DNA from: Chloroherpetonaceae bacterium
GTDB lineage: Bacteria; Bacteroidota; Chlorobiia; Chlorobiales; Chloroherpetonaceae
DNA length: 64,000 bases
NCBI GenBank assembly: GCA_028277445.1
Contig: JANQGG010000063.1
Span: forward strand, 62,001 to 126,000
Direction of reading: 5' to 3'
The notes under the pieces: generated by a model
What the model saw: only the letters and a program-made list of their open reading frames with translations
Databases searched by the model: none
Told to the model about the DNA's origin: nothing
Position numbers and translations under genes: made by a program
Shown: in pieces, positions 35,043-48,700 of the stretch
How the letters are laid out: every line of letters starts with the position of its first letter
Numbering within the stretch: position 1 is the stretch's first letter

Positions 35043-35561
35043 TTAAGAATCCGCATTATCACCAAGCGTTTTATTCAATTGCTCATCAAGCAATGCGTTG
35101 AAATTATCATCAAAAATATTTGAAAAATCGACCTCAAACTCTTCCGATGAGATAATTTCAAGAAGTTTTTCTTTGGCTTTCTTAGAATAAATTCGGATAG
35201 TTCCGGGAGGGATGGATGCTTTAAAAATAATTTCCAGGATATAACGATCATTAATGCTAAGTAAGTAAATGCTTCGTTTTTCTCCTTCGTGAAAAAGAAT
35301 TTCAAATGAAGTTTGCTCACCGATCTGTTTTGCCATTTCAGCAGTTGCTGCGAAGTTAGATGCAGCTAAAACGCTAAAAACTTCTAAATCACGATCTAAT
35401 AACCCACCATGTTTGGCAAGCAATTGACCGGTCATATCTCCAAGAATTACTGCAGAGGCACCTGTTTTCGTAGCAAATTCCTTCAAAACCTTCTCCGCGG
35501 CTTGCAGCTGATTTTCAGTTAAAATTATCTTTCTGAAATCTTCTTTTTCAGTCGAACTCAT
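35043..35561 (-). CDS. Roadblock/LC7 family protein (long)
   Basis: 172 residues. The central part, about 18-130, has the roadblock pattern: a helix, 'GASAVILGDMTGQLLAKHGG' strand pair, a long helix 'SVLAASNFAATAEMAKQIGE', then strands 'SFEILFHEGEKRSIYLLSI' and 'YILEIIFK'. A C-terminal acidic helix follows (FEVDFSNIFDDNF). Roadblock proteins such as MglB regulate small GTPases. It lies beside a second roadblock gene and divergent from the chemosensory locus. Confidence 0.75.
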   Translation of the reverse strand: MSSTEKEDFRKIILTENQLQAAEKVLKEFATKTGASAVILGDMTGQLLAKHGGLLDRDLEVFSVLAASNFAATAEMAKQIGEQTSFEILFHEGEKRSIYLLSINDRYILEIIFKASIPPGTIRIYSKKAKEKLLEIISSEEFEVDFSNIFDDNFNALLDEQLNKTLGDNADS

Positions 35562-35572
35562 TGTAATTATGA

Positions 35573-35932
35573 TTATAATTGTTTTTGAATTTCAGGCATC
35601 AACTTTGACACTTGATAACGAATATTCCCCAGCATAGTCGTTTGATCTGCAACAACCGTTAAAATTGTTGCGCCGTCTGAACTTATTTTAGACAATAAGA
35701 TTCCATTGTCATATTCTACCATATTCTGTTCAACTTTCCCAACATTTAATTCGCTCCCAATACTTTCAGAACTTTGCAATCCACCGATAACTATCGCACC
35801 AACCGTTTCCATATCAATATCAGGATTACTTGATTGTTGATTGATTACAAATCCGTCTGAGCCTATTAATGCCGCAGCCTGAATACCATCAACCGTTAAA
35901 AGCGTATTTAATAAATCATTTATTTGAGGCAT
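35573..35932 (-). CDS. Roadblock/LC7 (MglB-like) protein
   Basis: 119 residues with a clear roadblock fold: 'LLTVDGIQAAALIGSDGFVINQQSS', a helix with 'VGAIVIGGLQSSESIGSEL', and strands 'NMVEYDNGILLSKISSDGATILTVVAD' followed by a C-terminal helix 'LGNIRYQVSKLM'. It resembles MglB and other GTPase regulators. It ends 12 bp upstream of the other roadblock gene, so they form an operon that ends at the terminator near 35.0 kb. Confidence 0.85.
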   Translation of the reverse strand: MPQINDLLNTLLTVDGIQAAALIGSDGFVINQQSSNPDIDMETVGAIVIGGLQSSESIGSELNVGKVEQNMVEYDNGILLSKISSDGATILTVVADQTTMLGNIRYQVSKLMPEIQKQL

Positions 35933-36489: not shown

Positions 36490-39198
36490 ATGGCAGATTC
36501 AGTAGCTAATCTATTCTCTAAAAACAGTGTAAAAGGTAAACTTCTCAGAGATTTTACCATAGCTATCTCCGCATCGGTGATTGCTGTTGGTATTTTTTTA
36601 GTAATTGCCATTTATTTTTTGAATAGAAATCAAGTAGAAAAAGCAACATATGAAATTGAAAAACAAGGGCAAGAGCGTTTATCCGAACAAACCAAAGTAC
36701 TTGAAGATGTTATAAATTCCGAACTATCTCAATTAGAAATTCAACTAGCTACTGATGTTTCATCAAAAGGTGTTCTTTCGTCAAAATTATCAACTTTCCT
36801 CAAATCGCCTTCAAATGCAAAATCTCGCCAAAATCGCAAAAAATTATATGATGCGGCATTAGAATCCATGGTTCAGCAAAAGCTGAGCATGCTTACTATT
36901 TTAGATACCGACGGCATTGTGGTTACACGTGCAACAAACCCCTCCCTTTATGGCGATGACATTTTCATTCGTGATTATAGCAAAGCGCAGCGACCCGTAA
37001 GCCCGATTATCAAAAGCATAACAAGTGCGCTTCAAATGAAATCCAAAACCGGGTTAATGATATTTCCTCGCGAAATTCTATCAACAGAGCTTGTTAATTT
37101 TGCAAATGCAATTAGTGGCGTAACCGTTGCTGGAAAAAATAACCTAGCCGATCAAGCACGAATTGCCGTTATGGGACAATCTCAACCCGAAACTCGAGGT
37201 TTGATGATGTGTTCCATTAAACCCGTTTTATCATCCGAAGGTACTCCGATAGGCATAGCTATCGCCGGAAAGCTCTTAAATCGAAACCCCAAAGTTGTTT
37301 TAAACAATTTTCATAAAGTTATTCCAAACAGCATTGCAAAGTCATCGTTAACCATAACTAACGTTAGGGTTATTACAACCGAAAGTTTGCCAAATGGCAA
37401 TCCATCTTTAGGCTATGAAATCCCAAACGAAATTTGGGAAGTGGTTCAACAAGATGATCGGTCTTATCTCAAACGCGCTTCAACAGGTGTTTTGGAAAAA
37501 GCGTATGCCCAATTTTTATCTTTAAAAGATGTTGATGGAAAAACCATCGGCGCTATTGTTGTTGCAACCGACTACCGTTATTACGCCGGGATTTTAGCCG
37601 ACCAGGAAAAAACATCAAACAGTATCATTTTCTTTACAATCGGTATTGTTTTTATTGTGCTTATCATTGGCGTTGGCGGTGGATTCTTTTTTGCCAAAGC
37701 TCGTTCCGACCTTATTACCCAAGCCCTGGATGAAATTAAATCGTTGATGAACAGCGTTTTATCCGGTGATTTCAACGCTCGATCTAATATTACAACAGGT
37801 GATGAGTTCGAAGAGCTCTCCGTTTTATTTAATGAGATGATCCGCAGATTATCGGCATTGATTGAAACAGAAACCGAGCGAGATGCCATGCAAAAGCAGC
37901 TCACCGATCTTTTGATTGTTGTATCTAATTCTGCCGACGGTGATTTTACGCAGCGAGCCGTTGTAACAGAGGGTGCGCTTGGCGCCTTGGCCGATTCATT
38001 TAATCTTATGGTTGATGATCTTGGCACTTTAATCAGGGAAGTACAATCAGCGGCACTCCAGGTAGGTGATGCCGGAACTGAAATTTTAAGCTCAACCGAA
38101 CAAATGGCACATGGCGCTGAAGAACAGTCCGTTCAGGTTGCCAATGCCTCGGCTGCTGTTGAAGAAATGGCCGCATCAATCCGACAAGTAGCCATGAATG
38201 CCGACTCTGCAGCTGAAGCCGCTCAACGCGCAACCCAGGTTGCTCAAACCGGTGGTAAAACCGTAGAAGAAACCATTGAGGGTATGAGACGCATACACTC
38301 TTCCGTACAAGACTCGGCTCAAAAGATCAAATCACTGGGTGAATCATCCTTAGAAATTTCAAAAATCGTTCAAACCATTGAAGATATTGCCAACCAAACC
38401 AACCTTTTGGCTTTGAATGCTACGATTGAAGCGGCTCGCGCCGGGGAAGCCGGTCGTGGTTTTGCCGTGGTTGCCGATCAGGTTCGTGAACTTGCTGAGC
38501 GTTCTTCTAAAGCGACAAATGATATCTCTCAGCTTGTGCAAACCATTCAATCTGAAACCCAGGATTCTGTATCTGCGATGGAACGCGGAACTATTGAAGT
38601 GGAACGAGGTACAAAATTAGCCGACTCTGCTTCCAGAGCATTGGAAGAAATCCGAAATGTGGTCACCCAATCTACTGAGCTAATTCAGGAAATTTCATTG
38701 GCCGCGAAACAGCAAGATATTGCTTCGAGCGGTGTTGTGAGCGCTATGACAGAAGTATCGCAAATTGCCAAACAATCTTTGCTTGGGGCTAAACAATCTG
38801 CGTCTTTAGCCACTCGCCTGAACTCCATTACGGAACAGCTTGCCAAATCAGTTTCTCGTTTTAAAATACCGGCCGGTGTGTTCCAATCGGATAAACCGTT
38901 CCAGGAACAACTTCAAGAAAATCTTATGATTTCTGATACTATTGAATCGTCTTCCGAATCTGAACTTCCTGAAGCTCAAAAACAAGAAGAATCCGTTGAT
39001 GAAAGCATGATTCAAGCCAGTGAAGAATTATTTACCAAAGAAGATTTCGAGAAAAATCCTGAAGCAATAATGAGCAATTTGGATTTCGATCCGGATAACT
39101 TTGACCCTGAGAAAGTTTTCATTACAAACCCCAAAGATAACGAAAACTTACCCGATCTTGATTTTGGAGAAAATGACCCGGACAAAACAACCTCTTAA
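36490..39198 (+). CDS. Methyl-accepting chemotaxis protein
   Basis: 902 residues. TM1 at about 17-40, a periplasmic sensor domain (about 40-375), TM2 at about 376-400, HAMP-like linkers (about 400-520, apparently two in tandem), and a cytoplasmic signalling domain with a hairpin tip '[21 protein letters not shown]' near residue 635. It has an acidic C-terminal extension of about 100 residues (after 795) with no methylation-type pentapeptide seen. It binds CheA and CheW and modulates kinase activity. It is transcribed with the giant CheA. Confidence 0.93.
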
Positions 39199-39279: not shown

Positions 39280-42200
39280 ATGTCAAATCCTGATTTATCT
39301 CAGAAACAAAATGTTAGTCAAGGAAAAAGCTCTCAATTTTTTGGGAATTTTCTTGACAAATCCGAAACGTGGGGCGCTGATAATCAAGATGCTCATGAAT
39401 TTGGTCTGTACTTTATCAAGCTCTTTTTAATTGATCTTGCTGATCGGCTCAAAGAATTGCGTCGAAATAAAACAACACGCACCACCCAAAACATCATTGA
39501 GTTTTTAACCAGGCTTTCGGTTGATGAAAACCCTGTTGAAACTTTAACCGTTTTGAACATTCATGAATTAAATGAGTTTCAAACGTTTATTGAAAACACG
39601 CAAAACAACCTTGAAAAAGAGTTTCAACAGGATCATGTGCCTCATGCCTATCAAGTTTTAACTGAAAACTTGGAAACCACTGCCGAGTATGTCAATAACA
39701 TTTTTTTGAGCATTGAAAAGAATCCTACGGATATTGAGACTATAAACAAATTTATATCTACAAATTTGTTTGATACGGTTAAAACGGATATCGAACAGCA
39801 AGCATCAACTCAGGATAATGTTTGGCACCAGCCTGTTGATCCTGAAACTGAAATACCTCACGAATCGATCGGCAACATTCCCAAACAATTTTCATCACCG
39901 GTTGCGGATTTCGGGTTTGAACTCTCATCATTATTTTCTAATGGGGAAACTGCTCAAACGACTTCTTCCCTGGTGCTTACGCCAAAGGATAAATCAACTC
40001 CGAAAATCGTTTCGGATCAAGAGCCTGCAGCTGATTCAAAAACTGAGGATTTACCTACCAATATCTTATCGTTATCAAAAGCGCAGGAAATTTTCAAAAC
40101 CATCGGTGCGAAAGCTACAAAAGAGTCAAAATCCGATAGAATTATTGATTTCTTTAAAACCCTTTCAAACTCTTCCGATTATTTAAACGATCTTGGTCGT
40201 TTTTATTCAATACCTGAGTTTCCGGGATTTCTTGAATTCATAACCATGATCGATCAACAGGAATCCTATGAAATTTCTTCAAAAGAACTTGATGAGATAT
40301 CCGATCATATCATTAAGATTTTAGAAAACGCGTTATCCGATCCAAACATTACTGAGAATATTGATAATTATATTCATTCCGGCGAGTTGGAGGACTTCAG
40401 CCAATTAGACCAATCTGATTTTGACAAATCATTACCTGATCTTTCCGATTCGGTTTTGGAACCCGATAACATTGAAGCGCTTTCCGAAGATGCTTTAAAA
40501 GAATTCACCTCAGAATTGGAAGATAGTACAACGGTTTCCAAACCGGAGACCGCACCGGAAAAACCAAAGCATTCAGAAATTGATGATATTAGTTTCTCTA
40601 ACTATGCCAAAGGTATTTTATTAAAAGTATCAAGCGACCTTCCGGATACTGATTCAGGGAAACTTGCCGAAACAGCGCTTTCCAATTTAATTAACCGATC
40701 AGAAATTATTGATGCGCTTGTTGTTACCGGGTTGCCCGGATTATCCGATTTTGGGCAGTTCATTCAAAACGCATTAATCAATCGAAACAAACTTGATGAT
40801 ATCACAAACTACTCTAATGATATTATCATAGAAATTCGCAAAAAATTGTTGGCTCATTTTGATGAAGGTGGCCAGTTGGATTTGGAAGATACGGCTGTTG
40901 AAAGTGATTTTGAAAAAGATGTCAGAAAACAAGCTGCTGAAGAAACAGAGAAAAGCATTCAGAATTATGAATCTTATGTATTTACAATTTTAGATCAGGT
41001 AAAAATTCAACTGCAAGAGAATTCTGAACTTGTCTCTTATTTAAATGACATCTCTATAAAAGCGCATATTTTAGATACTTTATTGGCGTCTGATATTGTT
41101 TGTTTGAAAAATTTTGCTCAATTCACCAAAGATGCCATAACTAATGGTATATCTGTTGATGAATTAACGTCCAATGCCGATCAGATCATTTCAACGTTGG
41201 TTGCCGAGTTACAATCATCTGATAACATCTTATCAACCCCAGAAACAGAAGAATTTGATAAAGCCGTTGATTCTTTAAAAGAAAACTTGGAAGAACCCGA
41301 AGCCATAGAATTACCAAGTTTAACCGATTTTGACTTTGATAACGAAGATTTGCCTTTTGAAACACCCGCACAACAAGAAAAATCTATAGACGTTTCACAA
41401 GCTGAAGGCGATAGGGTTGAGGCTGATTATGTCCAAACCTTCGCCAGTTCCCTTCTTAAAGAATTACAGCAACTGGTTAAAGAAAACAATAACGCTGTTG
41501 AATACATCCGGCAAATGATTAATTCAACGGATATCATAGAACAACTGCAAAATTCCACATTAACCAGTTTCAAAGAATTTTCGGCGTTCCTTAATCATGC
41601 GATAACATCTTCACTATCTATTTCTGAGCTTGAATCAAATAAATCCGATATTCTCAACGTCTTATTTGATGATATTAACTCTAAAGCCGATCAGCTTGAA
41701 GTTGAGCCACCGGCTCAAACTCATACAGAAACCGCAGACTCCAACAAGCAATTGCCCTCAGCATCCATTGATGACAGTTTCTCTCTGGGTGATCTTTTTA
41801 TAGACCAAGCTGGCGATTCTGATCAAGATTTGCCCGCTAAAACAGATGCAAACTCCGCCTCATCTGAAATTGATGCGTCTTTAGCAAGCGAAAAACTTTC
41901 TGATGATGTTTTCAGCAACGAATCCTTGCCATCTGAAGAAGCGTTGGGTGAACCGGAAGAGAAATCTCAAACTCAAGACGTCTTAGATTCAAGTTCTGAA
42001 ACTCTGGATGATCTTCAGCTGCCCGATGGATTCATTATTTCTGAAGAGCCAAATGAAACGGATGCTCCTACCCTTCCTGATGATCCAGGGCTGACGGATT
42101 TTCTAAATACAGACAATGACTCCGAGCAATTACTCGACGATTCCGACACGTTACTAGAGCTTGATTCTGATCTCGTAGTAGATGAAGACGATAAGAAATC

Positions 42201-45200
42201 CCCGGAAACACCTGTTCCCGATACGGAAAATATTAGTCAGGATTTTTTTAACGAAGATATGTCTTTGCTCTCTGATCACGACTATTTTGATAATATGCCT
42301 GAAGTTTCGGATATAACTCCTGAAACGCAAGCTTCAGAAACGACAAAAGAAGAGCCATTGGCAGATCAATCCCGTGATGAGACATCCGATACAATATCTT
42401 CCGAGCCTTCTTCTATTGAAGAATTACCAACTGAAGATTTAACATTAGATGATACCATCAGTTTGGATGATTCCGAGTCAGAACTACTTGAGCCTGAAAT
42501 AACAAATCCTCAAGATGATTTATCATCAATTAATACCGATGAAAGCTTACCTGAAAATCAAGATCAGTCTGAGTCATCTGAAGTTGATGATTTGTTCGTA
42601 AAAGAACCTGCATCCGATATACACGCTGAAACGGATGAACTTGTCGGGTTTGATAGTAGCGATTTGATTTTGGATGATTCTCAGTTGGTTGTAGAAGAAT
42701 CTGACAAAGAACACGCGGAATCATTAGATTTTAATGAGTCCCTGGAAAATTTTGATGACGATCTGGATCTATCATTATCAGATACCATCTATAACCCCGA
42801 TGAATTGAGCGATAGCCAAGCAAAACCAACCGATGATGATTTAACGTTGCCGGAATCACCGCAGGTCGAAGAATTGGATTCAATTCAAGAAAGTATTGTT
42901 GATGATAATGCCGATAGCGATTCAGAGTCAAACACTCAGGATATAGAGTCCCTGAATGAATCTCTTGATGATTCTCTGAATGATGCTCTTGATAACTTAT
43001 CCGATGGTTCTGAACGTGAAGACGAGCCAAAACATGAAGGAATTGAAACGTCCGAATCTTCACAAGACATCGTGCAACCCGAAACGCTATTGACGCTTGA
43101 CGATACTTTTCTGAATTCAGATGATCTTATCCTGGATGATAGCCCGGAAATTATCTCTGAACAACCCACAGAGTCTTTAGCAGCAGAAGAAAGTCACCAA
43201 GAAACAGATTCATTCCAACCCGATGAAATCCAACAAGTATTCCTTGAAGAAGCTAATGAATACATAGAAAAACTTAATGCCGATCTCTTAGAGCTTGATA
43301 AGGTTGCCGATTCAGTTCAACCCGAACTGGTTAATAAAGTCCTGCGCGGCTCTCACACCATTAAGGGTTCTGCTGCAATGGTTCAACTTAAAAACATTAG
43401 TGATCTTGCCCATAAAATGGAAGACTCACTGCAAGTTGTTCGTGATAAAAACTTACCGATCCCGCATGTATTAATTGATCGCTTGTTCCAATCGGCTGAT
43501 GCGATTTCAGCAATGCTCCAACATTTCCGGCAAAGCGGTAGTGATAAAGCTGGGGATTATTCGAAGCTTACCGAAACGTTGATTTTTTATTCATCTCAGC
43601 TTCAGGAAAGCGGCCAGATCACCCAGTTTGATCTTCCATCATCAGAAAAGCCCGAGGACGATTTCGAGCTCAACGAAATCCAGCAGGTTTTCTTGGAAGA
43701 AGCTTTGGAGTATGTTGAAAAACTTAATGCAGATCTACTTGAACTGGATAAACACATCGATACCCAACAGCCCGAATTAATCAATAAAGTTTTAAGAGGC
43801 TCTCATACCATTAAGGGCTCTGCTGCAATGGTTCAACTCAGCCAACTGAGCGATTTGGCTCATAAAATGGAAGATTCGTTGCAGATTATTCGAGATAAAA
43901 ATCTTAAAGTCCCTCGTTTGTTGATCGATGTCTTATTCCAGTCTGTTGATGCAATTTCTGAAATGCTTCAAAATTTCAGACGTACCGGTAAAGATATTTA
44001 TGATACCCAAAAGCCTTTGGTAGAAACATTGTTGTTTTATCAAACACAACTGGAAGAAAAAGGTGAAATTACCGAAGAGTTTAAAGGTCAGGCTAGCGCT
44101 GCCAAATCCGAATCCACCCAGAAGACGCCGCCAAAAGCTGCTCAATCCAGTGTTGCCGAGCAAACCGTTCGTATTGATATTGCCGCGCTGAACAGTTTGG
44201 TAAACCTTTCTGCTGAACTTGTTATTGCTCGTAACCGATTGAACAACGAACTTGGCTCTGTAGAAAAACTGGCATCCAAATTTTTGAAAGAACGTCAATC
44301 ACTGAGCCAAATCAGTAAGAAAATTGGTGAAAGTGTTCAAAAAACATCAAAACCAAAAAAAGACAGCGATCAGGAAAACTCATCTGATAATAAGACGGTC
44401 ATAAGTTCCGAACTGGAAGAAAATACGGATGTTCTGGAAGAGTTTTCTGAAAGCGAATTCGACCGTTTCAGTGAGTTCGATATTATCTCTCGTGATATTA
44501 AGTCGAGTATGTTAAACTTTGAAGACTCCATTAAAGAACTCCGCGAGTTTTCTTCATTCCTCAATCAAAATATTGTAAAGGTTTCTACCATCGCAAACGA
44601 CCTTAACCGTGTTATTGTGGATATGCGTATGGTTCCGGTTAAACAGATGTTTATCCGGTTTAGCCGTTCAGTGAGAGATATTGCGAAATCAGAGAATAAA
44701 AAGATTAATTTTATTACTGAAGGCGAAGATACCAAGCTTGATAAAATGGTGATGGAAGAAGTTATTGAGCCTATGATGCATATTGTTAGAAACTCCATCG
44801 GTCACGGTATCGAATCACCCGAAAAACGTCTTGAATCGGATAAGCCTGAAGTTGGCGAAGTTACCCTGCGCGCTTATCAAAAAGGCAACCGCGTCATCTT
44901 GGAAGTTGATGATGATGGCGCAGGCATTTCGATTGACAAAGTCAAGAAGAAGGCGTTGGAAAAACACCTCATCACGGAATCGGAAGCTGAAAAAATGACG
45001 CCTGAAGAAGCTTCGGCCATTATCTTCAAACCCGGATTTAGCACTGCTGAGCAAATTACATCGCTACATGGTCGCGGCGTTGGCCTTGATGTTGTTCATA
45101 ATACCATTCGTAAACTCAAAGGATTTGTAAATATTGATTCCAAAGAAGGCGTTGGTACGAAATTTATCATCTCATTGCCTTTAACCCTTGCTATCAGTGA

Positions 45201-46068
45201 TGCGTTACTGGTTGAAGCTGAAGGATTTAAATATGCCATTCCTCTGGATATGGTCTTTGAAACGGTCAACTTCCCTTCCGAATACATCGAATATATTGAT
45301 GACAAACGCTTTATTGAAATTCGCGGCGAGCAATTTGAACTGGTATACTTAAATGATTTGCTTGGATACGAATCCGATGTTTTGCATTTCAAAGCAACAC
45401 TGCCGGTTGCCGTTATTGAGCTGGAAAATAAAAAAGTAGCTGTTGGCGTTGAAAAACTTTTTGGCAAAGAAGAAATTGTTGTAAAAGCTTTAGGCTCACA
45501 TTTAAGAAATGTTAGAGGCGTCATTGGCGCTACAATTCGCGGCGATGGGCAGGTTATTTTGATTTTGGACATGAATTATTTGCTTAGTCCCGAAGAGGAA
45601 AAAGGTAAAGACCTTTACGTGACGATTGAAAAGCCGGATACGGATGTTTTGGAATCCCAGGAGCCAAAGCTTCCCGAACGCACAAAACGAAAACGTAAAT
45701 CCGAAAAAATCTGTGTGTTGGCAGCTGATGATTCACCCAGCGTTCGAAAATATATTCAATCTATTTTACAACAACACGATATTGAAGTCATTAGCGTTGA
45801 TGATGGGCTTAACGCCTTGAATAAACTACCAACTTCGAAATGCGATATTATTATCACCGATCTTGAAATGCCAAGAATGAATGGTTTTGAGCTTGTATCG
45901 GAAGTAAGAAAAATGCCTCAATACAACGACCTGCCGATTGTTATCGTAACGGCTCGTGCCGGTGATAAGCATCGCAGAAAAGGTATTGAACTAGGCGCTA
46001 ATGCATTTATCAATAAACCGTTTGATCCTTCGCAGCTAGTTGAGACTATTGAGAGTTTCGTCTCATAG
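39280..46068 (+). CDS. cheA: Giant hybrid CheA with tandem HPt domains and receiver
   Basis: A 2262-residue kinase. N-terminal region (about 1-810) with at least five divergent helical units, centred near residues 89, 305, 480, 601 and 756, each with a 'L-x-S/D-F-x2-F' type core. Then an Asp/Glu/Ser-rich linker of about 500 residues. Two HPt domains, with phospho-acceptor H1359 and H1509, spaced exactly 150 residues. A dimerisation and ATPase part (N-box 'MHIVRNSIGHGIE', 'DDDGAGI', 'HGRGVGLDVV'), a CheW-like domain, and a C-terminal receiver with phospho-acceptor in 'IIITDLEMP'. It resembles PilL/ChpA hybrid kinases of twitching and gliding systems. ATG at 39280 is used; TTG at 39271 is unlikely. 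Confidence 0.92.
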   Translation: MSNPDLSQKQNVSQGKSSQFFGNFLDKSETWGADNQDAHEFGLYFIKLFLIDLADRLKELRRNKTTRTTQNIIEFLTRLSVDENPVETLTVLNIHELNEFQTFIENTQNNLEKEFQQDHVPHAYQVLTENLETTAEYVNNIFLSIEKNPTDIETINKFISTNLFDTVKTDIEQQASTQDNVWHQPVDPETEIPHESIGNIPKQFSSPVADFGFELSSLFSNGETAQTTSSLVLTPKDKSTPKIVSDQEPAADSKTEDLPTNILSLSKAQEIFKTIGAKATKESKSDRIIDFFKTLSNSSDYLNDLGRFYSIPEFPGFLEFITMIDQQESYEISSKELDEISDHIIKILENALSDPNITENIDNYIHSGELEDFSQLDQSDFDKSLPDLSDSVLEPDNIEALSEDALKEFTSELEDSTTVSKPETAPEKPKHSEIDDISFSNYAKGILLKVSSDLPDTDSGKLAETALSNLINRSEIIDALVVTGLPGLSDFGQFIQNALINRNKLDDITNYSNDIIIEIRKKLLAHFDEGGQLDLEDTAVESDFEKDVRKQAAEETEKSIQNYESYVFTILDQVKIQLQENSELVSYLNDISIKAHILDTLLASDIVCLKNFAQFTKDAITNGISVDELTSNADQIISTLVAELQSSDNILSTPETEEFDKAVDSLKENLEEPEAIELPSLTDFDFDNEDLPFETPAQQEKSIDVSQAEGDRVEADYVQTFASSLLKELQQLVKENNNAVEYIRQMINSTDIIEQLQNSTLTSFKEFSAFLNHAITSSLSISELESNKSDILNVLFDDINSKADQLEVEPPAQTHTETADSNKQLPSASIDDSFSLGDLFIDQAGDSDQDLPAKTDANSASSEIDASLASEKLSDDVFSNESLPSEEALGEPEEKSQTQDVLDSSSETLDDLQLPDGFIISEEPNETDAPTLPDDPGLTDFLNTDNDSEQLLDDSDTLLELDSDLVVDEDDKKSPETPVPDTENISQDFFNEDMSLLSDHDYFDNMPEVSDITPETQASETTKEEPLADQSRDETSDTISSEPSSIEELPTEDLTLDDTISLDDSESELLEPEITNPQDDLSSINTDESLPENQDQSESSEVDDLFVKEPASDIHAETDELVGFDSSDLILDDSQLVVEESDKEHAESLDFNESLENFDDDLDLSLSDTIYNPDELSDSQAKPTDDDLTLPESPQVEELDSIQESIVDDNADSDSESNTQDIESLNESLDDSLNDALDNLSDGSEREDEPKHEGIETSESSQDIVQPETLLTLDDTFLNSDDLILDDSPEIISEQPTESLAAEESHQETDSFQPDEIQQVFLEEANEYIEKLNADLLELDKVADSVQPELVNKVLRGSHTIKGSAAMVQLKNISDLAHKMEDSLQVVRDKNLPIPHVLIDRLFQSADAISAMLQHFRQSGSDKAGDYSKLTETLIFYSSQLQESGQITQFDLPSSEKPEDDFELNEIQQVFLEEALEYVEKLNADLLELDKHIDTQQPELINKVLRGSHTIKGSAAMVQLSQLSDLAHKMEDSLQIIRDKNLKVPRLLIDVLFQSVDAISEMLQNFRRTGKDIYDTQKPLVETLLFYQTQLEEKGEITEEFKGQASAAKSESTQKTPPKAAQSSVAEQTVRIDIAALNSLVNLSAELVIARNRLNNELGSVEKLASKFLKERQSLSQISKKIGESVQKTSKPKKDSDQENSSDNKTVISSELEENTDVLEEFSESEFDRFSEFDIISRDIKSSMLNFEDSIKELREFSSFLNQNIVKVSTIANDLNRVIVDMRMVPVKQMFIRFSRSVRDIAKSENKKINFITEGEDTKLDKMVMEEVIEPMMHIVRNSIGHGIESPEKRLESDKPEVGEVTLRAYQKGNRVILEVDDDGAGISIDKVKKKALEKHLITESEAEKMTPEEASAIIFKPGFSTAEQITSLHGRGVGLDVVHNTIRKLKGFVNIDSKEGVGTKFIISLPLTLAISDALLVEAEGFKYAIPLDMVFETVNFPSEYIEYIDDKRFIEIRGEQFELVYLNDLLGYESDVLHFKATLPVAVIELENKKVAVGVEKLFGKEEIVVKALGSHLRNVRGVIGATIRGDGQVILILDMNYLLSPEEEKGKDLYVTIEKPDTDVLESQEPKLPERTKRKRKSEKICVLAADDSPSVRKYIQSILQQHDIEVISVDDGLNALNKLPTSKCDIIITDLEMPRMNGFELVSEVRKMPQYNDLPIVIVTARAGDKHRRKGIELGANAFINKPFDPSQLVETIESFVS

Positions 46069-46112
46069 CTTGTTATTGTTTTCACTTGTTTCAATTCATA
46101 TTATTTTGTTCT

Positions 46113-46595
46113 ATGCCGTCTTCTGAAAGCAACCGAGCAGATCAAAAGATCAATGAATCAACCATTTTACTATGTCAGATCAGTGGGCGGCTATTTGGAC
46201 TCCAAGCCAGCCATATTCGAATTATTACCGAATTTTCGATCACGGATAGCCGCGTTATTTTAGAATCAAATATTGGTTCTATAAAACTTTCCGATAGTAA
46301 AATTCCTTTATTCAATATTTCTGATTTTCTTGAACTTAACTCTATTACATCTCCTCAAAAGTTTTCGGCCATTATCGTAACATTTGATGGCAAATCATTT
46401 TATGCTCTGCTGGCGGAAAAAATATTAGGCGTTATTAACGTCGAAACTTTTTATTCGATACCTAAAAACGGGTTAAAATATCAGAACATCTATAAATCGT
46501 TATTTTATTTTCAAGAAAAGCTGATATTGCTCGTTGATCTTGAGCAAATATTTTCAAAAATTGTGAATAAAGAGCGTCTTTTAGGACACCTTTAA
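46113..46595 (+). CDS. CheW-like protein 1
   Basis: 160 residues from the ATG at 46113. It shows a CheW-type beta pattern: 'ILLCQISGRLFGLQASHIRIITEF', 'IPLFNISDFLEL', 'KFSAIIVTFDGKSFYALLAEKILGVINVETF', 'LILLVDLEQIF'. CheW couples receptors to CheA. It has diverged strongly from classical CheW. It lies 44 bp after cheA and 7 bp before the second CheW-like gene. Confidence 0.75.
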   Translation: MPSSESNRADQKINESTILLCQISGRLFGLQASHIRIITEFSITDSRVILESNIGSIKLSDSKIPLFNISDFLELNSITSPQKFSAIIVTFDGKSFYALLAEKILGVINVETFYSIPKNGLKYQNIYKSLFYFQEKLILLVDLEQIFSKIVNKERLLGHL

Positions 46596-48331: not shown

Positions 48332-48700
48332 ATGGGGACAAATTTTAGTGATGTGATTTCTGAATTCAATGAATTGGATTCAATAGAAGGTGTCTTGGTT
48401 ATTGATACTGATGGGTTAGTTATGGCTAGTTCATTTGAAACTCAGGGGTATACCGAGTCAGCTGCACCCATGTATTTGAAGCTGATATCGGATATACATA
48501 CCAACATGCAAACATTACAAGAAACAACAAATCAGGTTTGCCTGGTATTAAATGAAAAATTGGTTTTAATCCAACCTGTTTTTGATCTAATTTTGATTGT
48601 TTATTCAAAAAAGAATAACCTGGATATTTTGCAAAAGAAAATAAAATCAGCAGTGCTTCTCTTGCAACAAATCAGTAAGCATGAAATTATAAACTCATAA
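48332..48700 (+). CDS. mglB: Roadblock/LC7 protein (MglB-like)
   Basis: 122 residues with the roadblock pattern: 'LDSIEGVLVIDTDGLVMASSF', helix 'MYLKLISDIHTNMQTL', strands 'NQVCLVLNEKLVLIQPVFDLILIVYS'. It directly precedes the MglA-type GTPase by 14 bp, the order found for MglB-MglA pairs, where MglB is the GTPase-activating protein. Confidence 0.85.
   Translation: MGTNFSDVISEFNELDSIEGVLVIDTDGLVMASSFETQGYTESAAPMYLKLISDIHTNMQTLQETTNQVCLVLNEKLVLIQPVFDLILIVYSKKNNLDILQKKIKSAVLLLQQISKHEIINS

What the first reader, a model, noticed from the sequence alone, without database searches (positions are those of the whole stretch)
39280..46068. Giant CheA with tandem HPt domains and five degenerate N-terminal repeats
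The two HPt domains share about 70% identity and their acceptor His residues lie exactly 150 apart (H1359, H1509), a clear domain duplication. The N-terminal region holds at least five diverged helical units (near 89, 305, 480, 601, 756), each with a core like 'L-x2-L-x2-F-x2-F' and often 'D-E-L/I-x-S/N'. They may be worn HPt-like or other helical modules. The Asp/Glu/Ser linker of about 500 residues is extraordinary in size.
Basis: partly seen in the sequence, partly recalled or inferred. Interest (0 to 1): 0.7.

Follow-up and report, generated by a model that had tools for sequence, protein, structure and literature searches.

The report
Giant gliding-control kinase with helical repeats
This gene encodes an unusually long version of a well-known bacterial navigation kinase, in which five copies of an undescribed helical module sit on long acidic floppy arms; it lies beside the genes of a Ras-like polarity switch, and in its order it occurs in the gliding lineages of green sulfur bacteria and not in their non-motile cousins.

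Summary
ORF 39280-46068 (2262 aa) is a CheA with two HPt domains (71% identical, H1359 and H1509 exactly 150 apart), a dimerisation/ATPase/CheW core and a C-terminal REC. The five N-terminal units are real repeats: profile-profile probabilities reach 99% (U3-U5), 98% (U3-U4) and 95% (U1-U2), shuffled controls under 3%. AlphaFold2 gives five ordered helical modules between disordered acidic linkers. Sequence profiles do not relate them to HPt (under 1%); no Pfam family or convincing PDB fold was found.
The protein is not an oddity of one genome. Orthologues of about 2000-2700 aa occur in all 12 non-Chlorobiaceae Chlorobiales genomes examined and in none of 49 inferred Chlorobiaceae. A more distant family (f5) has the same operon and a shorter version. 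The operon is MglB-Roadblock / MCP-CheA-CheW-CheW-RR/DUF4388-Roadblock-Roadblock-MglA, so this is most likely a Frz-like chemosensory hub feeding an MglA/MglB polarity switch for gliding; the N-terminal modules are probably a docking scaffold (inferred). The HPt pair shows concerted evolution. New variant of a known kind (multi-HPt CheA) with an undescribed repeat domain.

The parts
39280..46068 (+). Giant CheA, 2262 aa
   Evidence: ORF; Pfam; orthologues
39388..39762 (+). N-terminal helical unit U1 (residues 37-161), best conserved unit
   Evidence: AF2 pLDDT about 65-86; hhalign to U2 94.7%, to U3-5 profile 93%
39907..39936 (+). Linker motif DFGFELSSLF (residues 210-219), conserved in orthologues and in outgroup family f5
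40075..40380 (+). Unit U2 (residues 266-367); matches unit 2 of the f5 proteins at 95.5%; carries His343, conserved in 10 of 11 Chlorobiales copies
40573..40875 (+). Unit U3 (residues 432-532)
40909..41223 (+). Unit U4 (residues 544-648), present only in this genome and the nearest relative G001
41419..41700 (+). Unit U5 (residues 714-807)
41704..43206 (+). Acidic linker predicted disordered by composition, about 500 aa, 31% D+E, with repeated LxLDDS-like motifs
43216..43590 (+). HPt 1, phosphoacceptor H1359
   Evidence: Pfam PF01627
43666..44040 (+). HPt 2, phosphoacceptor H1509
   Evidence: Pfam PF01627
44158..44610 (+). Extended dimerisation region (about 150 aa, with an acidic insert)
   Evidence: PF02895
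44767..45186 (+). HATPase_c (CheA P4), with N-, G1- and G2-box motifs
   Evidence: PF02518
45202..45588 (+). CheW-like domain (P5)
   Evidence: PF01584
45715..46050 (+). C-terminal REC domain (D2194 as likely acceptor, from the TDLEMPRMNG motif)
   Evidence: PF00072
36490..39198 (+). MCP with Cache-like domain, HAMP and signalling domain
   Evidence: Pfam; orthologues
46086..46595 (+). CheW a
   Evidence: PF01584
46603..47052 (+). CheW b
   Evidence: PF01584
47082..48254 (+). Response regulator: REC - DUF4388 - Roadblock
   Evidence: Pfam (the Roadblock match is weak, below cut-off)
48332..48700 (+). Roadblock protein
   Evidence: PF03259
48715..49416 (+). MglA Ras-like GTPase
   Evidence: PDB MglA 3t12 E 3e-69
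35043..35561 (-). MglB-like Roadblock GAP
   Evidence: NF052242 6e-20 (below its cut-off); PDB MglB 6h5b 6e-14
35573..35932 (-). Roadblock protein
   Evidence: PF03259

Best explanation
The protein is the sole CheA of its genome and the hub of a Frz-like chemosensory system wired to an MglA/MglB polarity switch that steers gliding. The MCP and CheW proteins would gate the kinase core. ATP would be used to phosphorylate H1359 and H1509 on the tandem HPt. Phosphate would go to the C-terminal REC (sink or relay) and to the neighbouring REC-DUF4388-Roadblock regulator, which would act on MglA/MglB. The 810-residue N-terminus would be a flexible, multivalent docking arm: 3-5 copies of a lineage-specific helical module on acidic disordered tethers with a conserved DFGFxLxxLF motif, holding partners near the kinase rather than carrying phosphate. 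Shown: domains, repeats, predicted order/disorder pattern, conserved operon, phyletic match with gliding families, sole CheA detected. Inferred: phosphoflow, MglA as output, docking role of the units.
For: Canonical HPt, kinase, CheW and REC domains with HTIKG, N-, G1- and G2-box motifs. The operon with MCP, CheW, RR/DUF4388, Roadblock and MglA, and divergent MglB and Roadblock, is conserved in Chlorobiales and in family f5. MglA and MglB are identified by match to solved structures. The CheA N-terminus occurs in 12/12 non-f4 genomes and 0/49 f4 genomes; MglA in 12/12 and 0/13; SprA of the type IX/gliding system in 8/8 and 0/5. Chlorobiaceae are non-motile while Chloroherpeton glides and Thermochlorobacter is considered to (PMC9318685). 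Only one CheA found in the genome. Units are ordered modules in disordered linkers without a family-wide conserved His. Frz acts on the MglA/MglB polarity module in Myxococcus (PMC10329633).
Against: No experiment. The gliding motor here is unknown: T4P/T2SS-type ATPases were not found in f1-f3, GldL gave only one weak hit and the GldM search had no working control, so the output machine is not identified. SprA also occurs in other genomes of the phylum with ordinary CheA, so it is not specific. Genes absent from Chlorobiaceae are separated by one lineage split, so the co-absence may be a single event. The assignment of family f4 to Chlorobiaceae is by elimination. RR/DUF4388 regulators may have other outputs. 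Unit function is not tested.
Confidence: 0.62

Rival explanations
1. The N-terminal units are decayed HPt domains (pseudo-HPt), as in ChpA/PilL, retained as spacers or phosphate-free binding bundles.
For: ChpA of P. aeruginosa has HPt domains without His and an HPt-like bundle not recognised by HHpred (PMC10782961). Units are helical; CheA P1 appears among weak VIA hits (Z 4.7). U2 carries a His (H343) conserved in 10 of 11 Chlorobiales copies.
Against: hhalign unit versus HPt below 1% for all units in both lineages; no HPt hit in Pfam in the region; predicted helix pattern is long-medium-short-medium-long, and H343 lies on the last long helix without the HxxKG motif.
Confidence: 0.15
2. A type IV pilus (twitching) control system of the Pil-Chp kind.
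For: Most multi-HPt CheA with C-terminal REC belong to the Tfp or ACF classes (PMC10782961).
Against: No T2SSE/PilT ATPase detected in this genome or in any CheA-bearing Chlorobiales relative tested, with the family found in 3 of 5 f4 relatives and in the control genomes.
Confidence: 0.08
3. An alternative-function (ACF) system that controls secretion, development or transcription rather than direction of movement, with MglA as a local switch.
For: The response regulator carries DUF4388 (I take it as related to the PATAN domain, from memory), and PATAN proteins lie near some mglA genes without a known fixed output (PMC4316618); no CheR/CheB adaptation genes lie in this operon.
Against: Presence/absence follows the gliding families, together with MglA.
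Confidence: 0.15

Closest known systems
ChpA/PilL (Tfp-class multi-HPt CheA, Pseudomonas Pil-Chp)
   Same: Very long CheA, several N-terminal modules, multiple HPt, no P2, C-terminal REC
   Different: Only two HPt, both with His and 71% identical; N-terminal units unrelated by sequence to HPt or to two giant proteobacterial CheA tested; acidic disordered arms; linked to MglA/MglB; no pilus ATPases found
FrzE / Frz system of Myxococcus xanthus
   Same: CheA with fused REC, MCP and CheW, acts on the MglA/MglB polarity switch in a glider
   Different: All parts in one operon here; the likely output regulator is REC-DUF4388-Roadblock; giant N-terminus and tandem HPt (FrzE layout from general knowledge)
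CheA of outgroup family f5 (G061, G065, G069, G073)
   Same: Same operon, kinase region 51-52% identical, N-terminal units and DFGFxLxxLF motif, acidic linkers
   Different: One HPt in CheA plus a separate HPt gene directly upstream; three units instead of five; about 1730-1890 aa

Membership tests
CheA histidine kinase | H-kinase_dim + HATPase_c + CheW in this order, plus HPt | tested here: met
   Pfam above curated cut-offs
Tfp/ACF multi-HPt CheA class | Two or more HPt and a C-terminal REC | tested here: met
   class features from PMC10782961
Tfp/ACF multi-HPt CheA class | Phylogenomic class assignment by class-specific HMMs | not testable with these tools
   class models not available
Pil-Chp (pilus) system | Type IV pilus ATPases in the genome | tested here: not met
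   No T2SSE/PilT match in own genome, G001 or other CheA-bearing relatives tested
HPt domain family (for the N-terminal units) | Sequence-profile similarity to HPt and a conserved HxxKG | tested here: not met
   hhalign under 1%; no HxxKG in units
HPt domain family (for the N-terminal units) | HPt four-helix fold | tested here: inconclusive
   single-unit folding failed
Frz-like / MglA-coupled chemosensory system | MglA GTPase and MglB GAP encoded with the chemosensory genes | tested here: met
Frz-like / MglA-coupled chemosensory system | Kinase signalling changes MglA polarity and reversals | not testable with these tools
   needs genetics and microscopy

The most novel reading that the evidence does not exclude
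The N-terminal repeats are a new docking domain that binds the Ras-like GTPase module (MglA, MglB or the Roadblock regulator) in several copies, so that the chemoreceptor kinase itself recruits the polarity switch; this would be a direct physical link between a chemosensory array and a bacterial Ras-like switch, a link whose mechanism is still unexplained in Myxococcus.
Probability: 0.22. Interest if true: 0.75.

Novelty: new variant of a known kind. Interest (0 to 1): 0.52.

Why it matters
How green sulfur bacteria such as Chloroherpeton glide and choose direction appears unstudied, as far as the papers searched show. This operon names a compact candidate circuit (receptor, kinase, regulator, Ras-like switch, GAP in about 14 kb) that in the order is present in the gliding families and absent from the non-motile one. 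It also offers an undescribed repeat domain in CheA, and tandem HPt domains kept nearly identical by repeated homogenisation, a natural test of why kinases keep several equal phosphoacceptors.

Tried and rejected
Foldseek with the 812-aa model gave nothing below E 0.3 in PDB and nothing below 0.003 in BFVD, with no useful TM-score; VIA-align gave only middling Z for generic bundles. The profile of the units against PDB sequences found nothing significant. A single-unit AlphaFold job was interrupted and the tool then switched off. A motif DDLF shared between MCP tails and the CheA linker was tested and rejected as shared: it is conserved in 10 of 12 MCP tails but not in CheA orthologues. LPDhxDF motifs recur in the linkers of one genus only. 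LxLDDS motifs are enriched in the window linker (7 against 0.7 expected) and in several orthologues, but not in f5 or the nearest relative; the motif was picked after looking, so it is only a lead. The GldM search had no working control. Pfam scan of two giant proteobacterial CheA to find a shared N-terminal family: none.

Full report
What is there. The ORF 39280-46068 encodes 2262 aa. Pfam places two HPt, H-kinase_dim, HATPase_c, CheW and REC above their curated cut-offs and nothing above cut-off in residues 1-1310. The HPt pair is 71% identical over 126 aa with His at 1359 and 1509. The HTIKG, N-, G1- and G2-box motifs are present; the usual NxxDHG reads NxxGHG in this clade, a position that varies elsewhere among CheA too, so I take the kinase to be active (inference). 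The dimerisation region is extended (about 150 aa), as reported for other Tfp-class CheA (PMC10782961).

The five units. Orthologues from 11 further genomes were aligned. Profiles of the units align with each other far above shuffled controls: U3-U5 99.3%, U3-U4 98.0%, U4-U5 96.9%, U1-U2 94.7%, U1 to the U3-5 profile 93%, U2 to it 79%; controls at most 2.7%. U4 exists only in this genome and its nearest relative, so copy number varies, as expected of repeats. AlphaFold2 with six orthologues gives ordered helical modules at 37-161, 266-367, 432-532, 544-648 and 714-807 (pLDDT mostly 65-88) between disordered stretches (25-35). The overall model is poor (pLDDT 60.6, pTM 0.27), so only the order/disorder pattern and helix positions are used. 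The units do not resemble HPt in sequence (under 1%). Fold searches were inconclusive.

Distribution. The N-terminal region was found in all 12 Chlorobiales genomes outside family f4 and in none of 49 f4 genomes. In a sample of 296 genomes of the phylum it is confined to these, save one marginal hit. Contig lengths tie several handles to Candidatus Thermochlorobacter, Thermochlorobacteriaceae and other Chlorobiales records; f4 is taken as Chlorobiaceae by elimination. G001 has the size I recall for Chloroherpeton thalassium (from memory). Chlorobiaceae are described as non-motile, Chloroherpeton as gliding and Thermochlorobacter as considered gliding (PMC9318685). MglA follows the same split, 12/12 and 0/13, as does SprA, 8/8 and 0/5. 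Pilus-type ATPases were not found in the CheA-bearing genomes.

Neighbourhood. The order MglB and Roadblock (minus strand), then MCP, CheA, CheW, CheW, REC-DUF4388-Roadblock, Roadblock, MglA (plus strand) is conserved in the nearest relatives, with some rearrangement: in f2 genus g3 the two CheW genes are missing from the operon, and in G009 MglA lies elsewhere on the contig. MglA and MglB match solved MglA/MglB structures. In family f5, a different lineage of the phylum, the same operon recurs with a CheA of about 1730-1890 aa whose kinase region is 51-52% identical. Its N-terminus holds three units; its second matches U2 at 95.5% over 75 residues, and the linker motif DFGFxLxxLF is shared. 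So the giant form predates Chlorobiales or was exchanged between the two lineages. There the CheA carries one HPt, and a separate 134-aa HPt gene sits just upstream.

Tandem HPt. Within-protein pairs are closer to each other than expected under one old duplication: in G019 and G005 the two copies are 99% identical in DNA over about 300-410 nt with sharp edges, while the two genomes differ by 13% in the protein. A tree with all first HPt as one clade is rejected (AU p 4.7e-10), likewise all second HPt (p 3e-21). This is recurrent duplication or gene conversion. These are draft genomes, so assembly error must be excluded for the 99% pairs. The window's own pair is older (68% DNA identity).

How it most likely works. 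The parts fit a receptor-kinase core phosphorylating two equivalent HPt, which serve the fused REC and the REC-DUF4388-Roadblock regulator, which acts on MglA/MglB. This parallels Frz acting on the Mgl module in Myxococcus (PMC10329633, PMC4316618). The N-terminal arm, acidic (31% D+E in the last 500-aa linker, net -144), is best seen as a tethered multivalent docking region. Direct evidence for its partner is lacking.

Novelty. CheA with several HPt and a REC are common (18% of CheA have two or more HPt, up to fourteen; PMC10782961), and ChpA is similarly large (general knowledge), so size and HPt number alone are not new. New, as far as six literature searches of an open-licence library show, are the repeat family, its operon with the complete Mgl module, and the concerted evolution of the HPt pair.

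Noticed in passing
L029 (G019) and L026 (G005), CheA HPt region; window 43216-44040: Tandem HPt copies 99% identical in DNA within two Thermochlorobacter-like genomes with sharp repeat edges, though the genomes differ by 13% in protein: concerted evolution or repeated duplication.
   Followed up: yes
L023 6671-14891 (G001, Chloroherpeton-like): CheA is split by a frameshift inside unit U2 into ORFs of 295 and 2455 aa, and has a third HPt; sequencing error, decay or frameshifting cannot be told apart.
   Followed up: partly
L153-L156 (family f5): A separate 134-aa HPt gene lies directly upstream of the giant single-HPt CheA.
   Followed up: partly
window 36490-39198 and orthologues, C-terminal tail: MCP tails carry a conserved (D/N)DLF(V/L)ED-like motif in 10 of 12 orthologues (not in this window's MCP); possible docking site.
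   Followed up: partly
L028, L030, L031, L033: In one Thermochlorobacteraceae-like genus the two CheW genes are missing between CheA and the response regulator.
   Followed up: no
own genome and relatives f1-f3: SprA is present, pilus-type ATPases and GldL were not found: the motor of gliding in these bacteria is not identified.
   Followed up: partly
window 40306-40308 (His343 codon): A His on the last helix of U2 is conserved in 10 of 11 Chlorobiales copies but not in f5.
   Followed up: no
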